Origin: Desulfobacteraceae bacterium
Lineage (GTDB): Bacteria; Desulfobacterota; Desulfobacteria; Desulfobacterales; Desulfobacteraceae
Assembly (NCBI GenBank): GCA_011390435.1
Contig: JAABSK010000027.1
Location: 1 to 20,237, forward strand
DNA: 20,237 bases
Reading direction: 5' to 3'
Of the stretch, positions 14,411 to 17,873 are shown piece by piece. Both the position numbers and the translations under genes were made by a program. The notes under the pieces were generated by a model. It ran no database searches, had not been told where the DNA came from, and worked only from the letters and a program-made list of their open reading frames with translations. The number at the start of each line of letters is the position of its first letter. The first letter of the stretch is position 1.

Positions 14411-14459
14411 ATGCGTATATGATGAAACTCAACGCCAATCTTATCCAATGGAGAAAAAA

Positions 14460-14672
14460 ATGGCTGGAAAAACCATTACATTGACGGTGGAAAACATGAG
14501 CTGCAACCATTGCTCTGCCATGGTCCAAAAAACCCTGGAAGAGATCAAGGGACTGTCAGAAATTTTTGTGGATCTTGACGGCAAAAAAGCCCGGTTTGAA
14601 ACTGATGATGACACACTGATTGAAAAGGCGATCACAGCGGTTTCCGAGGCTGGATACCCGGCATCCAGATAA
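14460..14672 (+). CDS. Heavy-metal-associated (HMA) domain protein upstream of hgcA
   Basis: A 70-residue protein that is one complete HMA domain of CopZ/MerP type. The metal motif is MSCNHC (Cys15 and Cys18). A typical beta-alpha-beta-beta-alpha-beta pattern follows, ending EKAITAVSEAGYP. Such proteins carry a soft metal ion (Cu(I) in CopZ, Hg(II) in periplasmic MerP) and pass it to a partner. There is no signal peptide, so this one is cytoplasmic. The start at 14460 fits GGAG at 14450-14453 with 6-nt spacing; an ATG at 14448 in the same frame contains that very site and was rejected. It is first in a three-gene set and ends 7 nt before hgcA. This context makes Hg(II) delivery to HgcA an attractive idea, but the motif alone cannot tell Cu from Hg. 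Confidence 0.88.
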   Translation: MAGKTITLTVENMSCNHCSAMVQKTLEEIKGLSEIFVDLDGKKARFETDDDTLIEKAITAVSEAGYPASR

Positions 14673-14679
14673 TTTTGCC

Positions 14680-15876
14680 ATGCAACCTTTTGAAATGATG
14701 CCATCCGCAGCTCAGCAGACAGATCCGTTCAAAAAAAAAGGCCTGTCCACATCCGGCGTAACCATACTGCCCTCAATGGATGCGCAGGGCATTTCCAAAA
14801 AAGATCTTCCCGATCCGTTAAGTATTCATGACAGACCTGGATTTAAACGCTGTACATTTGTCCGGGATTTTATCCAGACAGCAGCAGGTGCTGTTCCAGT
14901 GATCACCCATGGGTGGAGAACCGATGATTTTTTTTCAACGCTGATTGTCCGGTGTGGAATCCAGCGCCACCAATACGCCATCTCTCCAGGTCTGTATGCC
15001 ATTGGCAAACCAGATGAAAAAAGCGACGTACTGGTCACAGCCAATTTCAAACTGACGTTTGATCATCTGCGCAAAGTGCTGCGCAACGTAAACGCATGGA
15101 TACTGGTGCTGGATACAAAAGGGGTCAATGTGTGGTGCGCTGCGGGTAAGGGCACGTTTTCAACCCAGGAGCTTGTAAAAAGAATCAAAGCGGTTTCCCT
15201 TGAAAAAATTGTAGGTCACAGGCGACTGATCCTTCCGCAGCTCAGTGCGACAGGTGTCAGCGCAAAAACCGTTAAAAAGCAATCCGGATTCCAGGTGATT
15301 TTCGGCCCTGTCCGCGCCAAAGACATACCAGCGTTCCTGAAAAACAACAGAACAGCTGATCCTGGCATGCGTCAGGTCACTTTTGATCTGTATGACCGTT
15401 TTATTCTGACCCCTGTGGAAATCCAGATCATTTTAAAACCCGCCCTCATCACTGCCCTTGTGGTGCTGCTCCTTTCAGGCATCGGACCGGAAATCTTTTC
15501 GCTGAGCAGCGCGTGGGAAAAAGGAAGAATCGGTCTGCTGGCCCTTGCCAGTGGGATTGTGTCCGGTGCAGTTTTCACCCCGGTACTGCTGCCGTATATT
15601 CCGGTAAAGGCCTTTGCCCTGAAAGGGCTTATCATTGGTGCCCCATCTGCATTCATCACCCTGCTTCTGGCACCATCGAGCAGTGTCGGGGCCTCAGGAA
15701 CTGCAGCATTGTTTTTATTTTCCATCACCGTGAGTTCATTTTTGGCAATGAACTTTACCGGTTCCACCCCTTTTACGTCACCTTCCGGTGTTGAAAAGGA
15801 GATGAAACACTACATTCCGGTGCAGCTGGCAACACTGCTGCTGTCATTTGGTCTGTGGATGTATTCAGCATTTTGA
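14680..15876 (+). CDS. hgcA: HgcA, corrinoid protein of mercury methylation
   Basis: A 398-residue HgcA. The diagnostic cap-helix motif NVWCAAGKGTF is at 150-160, with Cys153 as the presumed lower axial ligand of the cobalamin cobalt. The corrinoid-binding domain spans about 75-225 (ISPGLYAIGKPDEKSDVLVTANFK in part, then LTFDHLRKVL). Five membrane helices follow at about 255-272, 284-303, 311-331, 338-358 and 379-396, as expected for the family. HgcA transfers a methyl group from methylcorrinoid to Hg(II), giving methylmercury, and HgcB re-reduces the corrinoid. The start is ATG at 14680, 7 nt after the HMA stop, without a good Shine-Dalgarno; ATGs at 14695 and 14698 are alternatives. Cys153 falls about 60 residues later than the Cys93 I recall for Desulfovibrio desulfuricans ND132, so there is an N-terminal extension. 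Confidence 0.96.
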   Translation: MQPFEMMPSAAQQTDPFKKKGLSTSGVTILPSMDAQGISKKDLPDPLSIHDRPGFKRCTFVRDFIQTAAGAVPVITHGWRTDDFFSTLIVRCGIQRHQYAISPGLYAIGKPDEKSDVLVTANFKLTFDHLRKVLRNVNAWILVLDTKGVNVWCAAGKGTFSTQELVKRIKAVSLEKIVGHRRLILPQLSATGVSAKTVKKQSGFQVIFGPVRAKDIPAFLKNNRTADPGMRQVTFDLYDRFILTPVEIQIILKPALITALVVLLLSGIGPEIFSLSSAWEKGRIGLLALASGIVSGAVFTPVLLPYIPVKAFALKGLIIGAPSAFITLLLAPSSSVGASGTAALFLFSITVSSFLAMNFTGSTPFTSPSGVEKEMKHYIPVQLATLLLSFGLWMYSAF

Positions 15877-15903: not shown

Positions 15904-16194
15904 ATGAAACATTTCAGACATTTAGAAAAGGTCTCCACCCTGACGCTGGATCAGGAAAAATGCATTGGCTGCACCCTCTGCACTCAGGTCTGCCCCCACA
16001 GCGTTTTCGAAATGAGCCAGCACAAAGCCTGGATTGTGGATTTAGACGCCTGCATGGAATGTGGCGCCTGTGTCCAAAACTGTCCGGTACAGGCTGTTTC
16101 CGTCAATCCAGGTGTGGGCTGAGCCGCCTATATTATCCAGGTCTGGATAAAAGGAAAAGAGCATGCCTCCTGCGGTGACGGTGGCTGCTGCTGA
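15904..16194 (+). CDS. hgcB: HgcB, 2[4Fe-4S] ferredoxin of mercury methylation; probable selenoprotein (UGA at codon 73)
   Basis: Read through one UGA, this is a 96-residue HgcB. Two 4Fe-4S motifs are seen: CIGCTLCTQVCP (first) and CMECGACVQNCP (second, the HgcB signature). After NPGVG comes UGA at 16120-16122 (residue 73), then the same frame runs AAYII...SCGDGGCC to a UGA stop at 16192-16194. HgcB proteins, as I recall them, have Cys after GVG and end in a vicinal Cys pair, so the UGA replaces a conserved Cys and the essential tail survives. A SECIS-like hairpin starts right after the UGA. I therefore annotate Sec73. Stopping at the first UGA would give a 72-residue protein lacking the terminal Cys pair. 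HgcB supplies electrons to HgcA; the terminal cysteines are thought to bind Hg(II). The gene starts 27 nt after hgcA. Confidence 0.88.
16120..16154 (+). promoter_or_regulatory. UGA codon plus SECIS-like hairpin inside hgcB
   Basis: After the UGA (16120-16122) the arms TTATCC (16133-16138) and GGATAA (16145-16150) pair perfectly around the loop AGGTCT (16139-16144). An outer CCT/AGG pairing (16127-16129 with 16152-16154) extends the stem across a small internal loop. The apical AGGUCU is the same as in the E. coli fdhF SECIS as I remember it, where GGUC follows the UGA by 18 nt; here the distance is 17 nt. The bulged U of fdhF is not obvious. SelB would bind such a hairpin to recruit Sec-tRNA. 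Confidence 0.78.
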
Positions 16195-17408: not shown

Positions 17409-17461
17409 ATCTAACAAGTCATTAATAATGACTAAAGTTCAAAAACACATAAAACGGTTAA

Positions 17462-17665
17462 CTAAAGCGCGGTTACATTCACTGCAGCAGGGCCTTTTTG
17501 TCCATCTTCAATGTCAAAGGAAACACGGTCCCCTTCATTTAGGGATTTAAAACCTGTAGAGTTAATTCCTGAATGATGTACGAATACATCTTTCCCACCG
17601 TCTTCCTGTTCGATAAATCCAAAACCTTTTGCGTCGTTAAACCATTTTACAATACCGTTGGCCAT
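17462..17665 (-). CDS. Cold-shock domain protein (CspA family)
   Basis: A 67-residue CspA-type protein that is one complete cold-shock domain. It opens [18 protein letters not shown], includes RNP1 (KGFGFIEQ) and RNP2 (VFVHHS), and closes [10 protein letters not shown]. Such proteins bind single-stranded RNA/DNA and act as RNA chaperones. The start at 17665 has AGGAGAT with ideal spacing; a GTG-initiated 96-residue reading was rejected because its extra residues do not belong to the domain and precede that site. A long leader (over 100 nt) with CCTCCTTA complementary to Shine-Dalgarno sequences lies upstream, as expected for genes controlled by mRNA folding. Which Csp paralogue it is cannot be told. 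Confidence 0.95.
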
Positions 17666-17765
17666 GTTGGCAATCTCCTGTAATAAAAAAAATAAAAAAT
17701 TTTCTGCTTCTAACTTAGGGGACAAACCACTTTTTATGTTGGGGATATACACCTTAAGGAGGAAA

Positions 17766-17792
17766 CACTTGCACTTCTTTGTGCAATAGTGT
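17766..17792. repeat. Inverted repeat between the csp and DRE-TIM genes
   Basis: TTGCAC (17769-17774) and GTGCAA (17779-17784) pair around the loop CTTT or TTCTTT. Flanking CAC and AGTG can add outer pairs across a small bulge. It lies in the 208-nt gap between divergent genes and could be an operator or part of the csp leader fold. There is no T run, so a terminator is unlikely. Confidence 0.4.
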
Positions 17793-17873
17793 CATATAAT
17801 GATCGACTTTTCAGCAAAAGTCAAGCATTATTATTTTCCATGTCAATAAAAAATCAAACCGGTACAGAGGGAT

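What the first reader, a model, noticed from the sequence alone, without database searches (positions are those of the whole stretch)
15904..16194. HgcB appears to be a selenoprotein: in-frame UGA at a conserved cysteine position
Seen: the hgcB frame meets UGA at codon 73, right after NPGVG, and then continues AAYII...SCGDGGCC to a second UGA. Known, from memory of the family: HgcB has Cys after GVG and ends in a vicinal Cys pair. Replacement of a conserved Cys by UGA, with conserved coding sequence on both sides and no other lesion, is the classic mark of a selenoprotein gene. I am not aware of a described Sec-containing HgcB. A selenolate would bind Hg(II) more tightly than a thiolate and could change mercury delivery to HgcA.
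Basis: partly seen in the sequence, partly recalled or inferred. Interest (0 to 1): 0.97.

Follow-up and report, generated by a model that had tools for sequence, protein, structure and literature searches.

The report
Selenium version of mercury-methylating ferredoxin HgcB
The gene codes for HgcB, one of two proteins bacteria need to make methylmercury, in a form that very probably carries selenium where most relatives carry sulfur; this form has been catalogued before, but here it appears as a single lineage whose partner protein has often lost a pair of cysteines.

Summary
The hgcB frame (15904-16194) has UGA at codon 73 and runs on to a second UGA; the read-through product matches HgcB over the whole profile. 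Of 80 relatives, 39 have TGA at that codon and 41 TGC/TGT. A 7-bp hairpin 10 nt after the UGA fits the published bacterial SECIS limits; its stem is identical in 61 of 61 UGA genes read and absent from 84 of 84 Cys genes. SelA, SelB and tRNA-Sec pass their cut-offs in 36, 32 and 33 of 39 UGA relatives. The window's own genome is not held.

The claim of novelty fails: Sec-HgcB ("GVGU") is listed in a 2026 review.

Possibly new: Sec-HgcB is one clade (100/99), and its HgcA has mostly lost the N-terminal vicinal Cys pair (kept in 11 of 60, against 75 of 76 beside Cys-HgcB, 26 of these as Cys-Sec); no locus read has Sec in both proteins. There is only one independent contrast, so this is a lead, not a demonstration.

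The parts
15904..16194 (+). hgcB, 96 residues with UGA read as Sec, stop included
   Evidence: NF040864 126.7 bits (cut-off 99), profile positions 1-93 of 93
16120..16122 (+). UGA codon 73, read as selenocysteine; homologous to Cys73 of the family
   Evidence: TGA in 39, TGC/TGT in 41 of 80 relatives
16133..16150 (+). SECIS-like hairpin: UUAUCCA (16133-16139), loop GGUC (16140-16143), UGGAUAA (16144-16150)
16127..16154 (+). hairpin with its weaker lower stem CCU/AGG (16127-16129 with 16152-16154)
   Evidence: lower stem kept in most but not all of 25 rows, no compensatory change
16186..16191 (+). C-terminal vicinal Cys pair, codons 95-96
   Evidence: 37 of 40 UGA genes (window included) end in CC at the first following stop
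16192..16194 (+). UGA acting as the real stop
   Evidence: what follows it differs from relative to relative
14680..15876 (+). hgcA, corrinoid protein with NVWCAAGK cap helix; no N-terminal Cys pair and no in-frame UGA
   Evidence: NF040863 424.3 bits, cut-off 275
14448..14672 (+). small heavy-metal-associated (HMA, MSCNHC) protein just upstream of hgcA; association only
   Evidence: PF00403; homologue upstream in 11 of 39 Sec-HgcB loci and 0 of 41 Cys-HgcB loci, contigs of uneven length

Best explanation
This is a selenocysteine form of HgcB, the dicluster ferredoxin partner of the mercury-methylating corrinoid protein HgcA. SelB bound to the hairpin just after codon 73 delivers Sec-tRNA there, giving a 96-residue protein with Sec73 in place of the essential Cys73 and a C-terminal Cys95-Cys96 pair. 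Most likely, as in the published model for the Cys form, the flexible C-terminal pair carries Hg(II) or methylmercury and residue 73 accepts it; a selenolate would bind mercury more tightly and stay deprotonated. Shown here by sequence: the frame, the homology of codon 73, the conserved hairpin and the Sec machinery in relatives. Inferred: that Sec is inserted in this organism, and what it does to mercury.
For: Read-through product is full-length HgcB beside hgcA. TGA, TGC and TGT are the only codons at the site in 80 relatives. The hairpin stem is identical in 61 of 61 UGA genes and absent from 84 of 84 Cys genes; in the first 40 UGA genes four stem codons (Ile, Ile, Gln, Ile) show no synonymous change, whereas none of 45 other conserved codons is free of it. 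The window hairpin (loop 4 nt, 7 bp, 17 nt from the UGA, -9.0 kcal/mol) meets the bSECIS limits given. Of 39 relatives' genomes, over the cut-off: SelA 36, SelB 32, tRNA-Sec 33. Cys73Ala abolishes methylation in D. desulfuricans ND132 (passage of PMC7305189). Sec-HgcB is already catalogued.
Against: No direct proof of Sec. The window's genome is not held, so its sel genes are unseen. As a single sequence the hairpin is not unusually stable (z -1.29 to 0.05), and there is no compensatory change because the stem never varies. A GG-loop stem of 6 or 8 bp also occurs in 2 of 41 Cys genes. SelA is in 38 of 41 Cys-HgcB genomes too, so the machinery does not discriminate. One protein in the database, P0002 (74% identical), has Leu at the position.
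Confidence: 0.96

Rival explanations
1. The UGA is a true stop (nonsense mutation or sequencing error) and the downstream frame is a relic.
For: Automatic gene calling ends the protein at 72 residues (P0001); one near relative has a sense codon (Leu) there (P0002).
Against: The same UGA is in 39 of 80 relatives and in 21 further genes, one of them on a 4.8-Mb contig (L111); codons after it are conserved as protein.
Confidence: 0.02
2. A deliberate short form: the UGA ends a working 72-residue HgcB and read-through is occasional, perhaps set by selenium supply.
For: UGA recoding competes with termination in general (recalled); both iron-sulfur motifs lie before the UGA.
Against: Residue 73 and the C-terminal Cys pair are needed for methylation in the Cys form (passage of PMC7305189), and the C-terminal CC is kept in 37 of 40 UGA genes. 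The short form could still be made at low selenium.
Confidence: 0.06
3. UGA is reassigned to an ordinary amino acid throughout this genome.
For: In-frame UGA inside a conserved gene.
Against: UGA is the first stop after codon 73 in 31 of 40 UGA genes, window included (in L023 that UGA is internal); the recoded UGA always carries the hairpin; relatives have SelA and tRNA-Sec; hgcA, the phosphofructokinase and the homocitrate-synthase-like gene of the window are open under table 11.
Confidence: 0.01

Closest known systems
Sec-containing HgcB (NF040864, motif GVGU, WP_250697400.1 in Table 1 of PMC13188914, its ref. 63; Haft & Gwadz 2023 by the citation in PMC11588087)
   Same: Same family, same motif GVG-U, one Sec at the same place.
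   Different: Only this member and its hairpin, clade and HgcA partner are added here; the primary paper was not readable, so overlap with it is unknown.
Cys-form HgcB of D. desulfuricans ND132
   Same: Same numbering of the cluster cysteines (20, 23, 26, 60 and 50, 53, 56, 30) and of residue 73 (passages); C-terminal Cys pair.
   Different: Sec for Cys at 73; pair at 95-96 instead of 94-95.
Sec-containing HgcA (NF040863, motif CU; Table 1 of PMC13188914)
   Same: Same mercury-methylation pair, Sec in the partner protein.
   Different: Sec lies in the N-terminal C-U motif of HgcA; not found together with Sec-HgcB in any of the 60 readable loci.
E. coli fdhF SECIS (recalled, no call)
   Same: Apical ...CA-GGUC-UG... 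as recalled.
   Different: The window stem is a continuous 7 bp without the bulged U recalled for fdhF.

Membership tests
HgcB (NF040864) | Score over the curated cut-off over the whole profile | tested here: met
   126.7 bits against 99, positions 1-93 of 93, UGA read as U
HgcB (NF040864) | Two CxxCxxCxxxCP motifs, Cys (or Sec) 73, C-terminal Cys | tested here: met
   compared with passages of PMC7305189
HgcB (NF040864) | Next to hgcA | tested here: met
   NF040863 424.3 bits at 14680-15873
HgcB (NF040864) | Needed for mercury methylation | not testable with these tools
   no experiment on this organism
Bacterial selenoprotein gene | In-frame UGA aligned with Cys of homologues | tested here: met
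   39 TGA, 41 TGC/TGT of 80
Bacterial selenoprotein gene | bSECIS: loop 3-9 nt, upper stem 4-16 bp, G in first two loop positions, 16-37 nt spacing, MFE at most -7.5 | tested here: met
   limits; window 4 nt, 7 bp, GG, 17 nt, -9.0
Bacterial selenoprotein gene | Compensatory changes in the SECIS stem | tested here: inconclusive
   upper stem invariant, 0 of 10 pairs with changes on both sides in 25 sequences
Bacterial selenoprotein gene | SelA, SelB, tRNA-Sec in the same genome | tested here: inconclusive
   own genome not held; in relatives 36, 32 and 33 of 39 over the cut-off
Bacterial selenoprotein gene | Sec detected in the protein | not testable with these tools
   needs 75Se labelling or mass spectrometry

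The most novel reading that the evidence does not exclude
Mercury methylators place selenium at one of two alternative sites, the N-terminal Cys-Sec pair of HgcA or residue 73 of HgcB, and not at both; once HgcB gained Sec73, the HgcA pair became dispensable and decayed several times. The two sites would then share one step of mercury handling, which would make the N-terminal tail of HgcA part of the mechanism.
Probability: 0.3. Interest if true: 0.62.

Novelty: new member of a known kind. Interest (0 to 1): 0.38.

Why it matters
HgcAB makes the neurotoxin methylmercury. A lineage with selenium at a cysteine known to be indispensable makes the role of that residue testable, may tie methylation to selenium supply, and means that ordinary gene calling cuts this hgcB short at codon 72 (as it did for the window). 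The apparent trade-off with the HgcA cysteine pair, if it holds, points to a second mercury-handling site in HgcA.

Tried and rejected
Considered and rejected: nonsense mutation or sequencing error, UGA reassignment, and a purposely short HgcB as the main product (see rivals). Rfam at E up to 1 found one match in the window, a sub-threshold cspA element away from hgcB, and nothing at the hairpin. Single-sequence folding gave no significant z-score, so the hairpin claim rests on comparison. Covariation gave nothing, because the stem never varies. Solved structures: HgcA matched 4 distinct sequences, all corrinoid iron-sulfur protein subunits; HgcB matched 132, and the 60 shown are other iron-sulfur proteins. 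The presence of sel genes was at first meant as a discriminating test; it is not, since SelA is in 38 of 41 Cys-HgcB genomes. The link between Sec-HgcB and loss of the HgcA pair has one independent contrast only, so no significance can be claimed. No structure was predicted.

Rows dropped and choices made: L029 (no HgcA on the contig), L035 and L080 (HgcA cut by the contig end), L061 (no usable motif; HgcA broken into two matches); in the second sample L081, L086, L098, L142 (no readable HgcA) and L149 (cut); six second-sample loci (L082, L084, L094, L096, L107, L110) are the same genomes as L049, L058, L062, L050, L053, L056 and were left out of the pooled counts. L130 is a second copy in the genome of L005 and is counted as a gene. 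L027 and L111 are 98% identical in hgcB; all 61 UGA genes differ from one another. The stretch counted for the HgcA pair (104-118 residues before the NVWCA motif) was fixed after a first look; L031 and L041 have an adjacent pair further upstream and are counted as without it. L029, L040 and L061 were left out of the careful tree.

Full report
Observation. The frame from ATG 15904 reads 72 codons, meets TGA at 16120-16122 and runs on for 23 codons to a second TGA at 16192-16194. With the UGA read as a residue, the product scores 126.7 bits against NCBIfam HgcB (NF040864, cut-off 99) over profile positions 1-93 of 93; the gene before it, 14680-15873, is HgcA (NF040863, 424.3 bits, cut-off 275).

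Codon 73 is the conserved cysteine. At the homologous codon 39 have TGA and 41 TGC or TGT, and none has anything else. The cluster cysteines of the window fall at 20, 23, 26, 30 and 50, 53, 56, 60, the numbering given for D. desulfuricans ND132, in which Cys73 is strictly conserved and its change to Ala abolishes methylation (passages of PMC7305189). In the protein database the window's own gene appears as a 72-residue protein (P0001); one relative, P0002, has Leu at the position, which I cannot explain beyond a substitution or an error.

Recoding signal. A hairpin UUAUCCA-GGUC-UGGAUAA begins 10 nt after the UGA. With any base at the fourth loop position it stands at the same place in 40 of 40 UGA genes (window included) and in 0 of 41 Cys genes; the best stem around a GG loop is 7 bp in all 40 UGA genes and 2-5 bp in 39 of 41 Cys genes, 6 and 8 bp in the other two. 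Four codons of the stem (Ile ATT, Ile ATC, Gln CAG, Ile ATA) have no synonymous change in 40 genes, while 0 of 45 other conserved degenerate codons of hgcB is free of it; the Val codon whose third base lies in the loop does vary. Twenty-one further UGA genes, from a second sample, keep exactly the same 7-bp stem; over all 61 the loop is GGUN in 58, GGGC in 2 and AGUU in 1, and the stem is absent from 84 of 84 distinct Cys genes. The hairpin meets the bacterial SECIS limits printed in the review (section 5 read): 4-nt loop, 7-bp stem, G in the first two loop positions, 17 nt from the UGA, -9.0 kcal/mol. Against it: as a lone sequence it is no more stable than shuffled sequence (z -1.29 to 0.05), and it shows no compensatory change because the upper stem never varies (25 of the 40 sequences were given to the alignment).

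Machinery. The window's genome is not held. In the genomes of the 39 UGA relatives, matches over the curated cut-off: SelB 32 of 39 (controls 2 of 14; four more have partial matches that I take for SelB, three show none), tRNA-Sec 33 of 39 (controls 5 of 14), SelA 36 of 39 (control 1 of 14, E. coli; one more partial). Every one of the 39 has at least one of the three, L018 only a partial match that I take for SelB; all 39 record titles say metagenome-assembled. SelA is equally common in Cys-HgcB genomes, 38 of 41, so the machinery is a condition met, not a proof.

Prior art. Table 1 of PMC13188914 (section 7, part 1 of 3 read) lists 'Mercury methylation ferredoxin HgcB, NF040864, GVGU, WP_250697400.1' and HgcA 'CU, NF040863'. 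PMC11588087 (passages) states that some hgcA and hgcB homologues may be selenoproteins and cites Haft & Gwadz 2023, 'Eight unexpected selenoprotein families ...' (PMC9879109). That paper is not held; I saw only its title and citation. So the window's gene is a new member of a described kind.

Origin. On a tree of HgcA plus HgcB with the codon itself left out, the UGA genes are one side of one branch, support 100/99, in all of 200 bootstrap trees (78 rows; 81 rows in the quick tree). The nearest Cys-form rows in the quick tree are L049, L062 and L042. Members with genus names are labelled Desulfobacula, Desulfotignum, Desulfamplus and Desulfobacterium (record titles). The sample was picked by likeness to the window, and only its first 80 members were seen by the tree. 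A second look over the order around one member found HgcB in 167 of 389 genomes, controls 0 of 14. I read 70 loci from it, picked as the 30 best matches, 20 with a TGA reported inside and 20 without, so they give no frequency: 21 UGA, 49 Cys. One UGA gene lies on a 4.8-Mb contig (L111).

A possible new point. HgcA beside Cys-HgcB carries a vicinal pair, usually C-C-G-P, near its N-terminus, about 112 residues before the NVWCA motif; in 15 of the first 41 Cys-HgcB loci its second residue is a UGA. These fit the Sec-HgcA of the review. I folded the stretch after each of the 15 UGAs and most give a hairpin, but without a control. Pooling both samples without duplicates, the adjacent pair is present in 75 of 76 Cys-HgcB loci with a readable N-terminus (49 Cys-Cys, 26 Cys-Sec; the exception, L099, reads C-S-UGA) but in only 11 of 60 Sec-HgcB loci, the window being without it; 0 of 60 have Cys-Sec. 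Within the Sec-HgcB clade the tree needs at least 7 changes of the pair, so it was probably lost repeatedly after Sec73 was gained. This suggests that the two sites share a task. The weakness is plain: Sec-HgcB is one branch, so there is a single independent contrast and no significance. Searches joining hgcB or HgcA with selenocysteine, selenoprotein, selenium, vicinal cysteine and Hg-MATE listed no paper whose title or abstract start states this; most were seen as listings only and the primary paper was not readable, so I do not claim that it is unpublished.

Mechanism. The published model (passages of PMC7305189) lets the C-terminal Cys pair fetch Hg(II), deliver it to the corrinoid and pass methylmercury to Cys73, from where an outside thiol takes it. 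In the window the pair is Cys95-Cys96 and the acceptor Sec73. A selenolate would bind mercury more tightly; release would then need a strong competing ligand. This is inference. Shown: gene, codon homology, hairpin conservation, machinery in relatives, clade. Not shown: Sec in the protein, function in this organism, any effect on mercury.

Noticed in passing
window 14448-14672: A small HMA-domain protein (MSCNHC) lies directly before hgcA; homologues lie upstream in 11 of 39 Sec-HgcB loci and 0 of 41 Cys-HgcB loci, some 3-4 kb away and on contigs of uneven length. It may be a metal chaperone of this lineage.
   Followed up: partly
L051, L054, L057, L064, L066, L069-L078 (hgcA N-terminus): 15 of 41 Cys-HgcB loci have an in-frame UGA in hgcA within C-U-G-P: it fits the Sec-HgcA already listed in the review.
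   Followed up: partly
L023:6217-6288: A second in-frame TGA in hgcB shortly before the C-terminal pair (ASC-TGA-DSGCC); error, decay or second Sec not decided.
   Followed up: no
L050:6217-6300: A Cys-HgcB gene ends GTGC-TGA-TAA, so the C-terminal pair could be Cys-Sec or a single Cys.
   Followed up: no
L005 and L130 (same genome): One genome has two hgcB genes, both with the UGA.
   Followed up: no
L099 (hgcA N-terminus): HgcA with C-S-UGA instead of the adjacent pair, a possible C-x-Sec variant.
   Followed up: no
window 17412-17807, minus strand: Sub-threshold cspA thermoregulator match (38.3 bits, gathering 78) over a cold-shock gene at 17462-17752.
   Followed up: no
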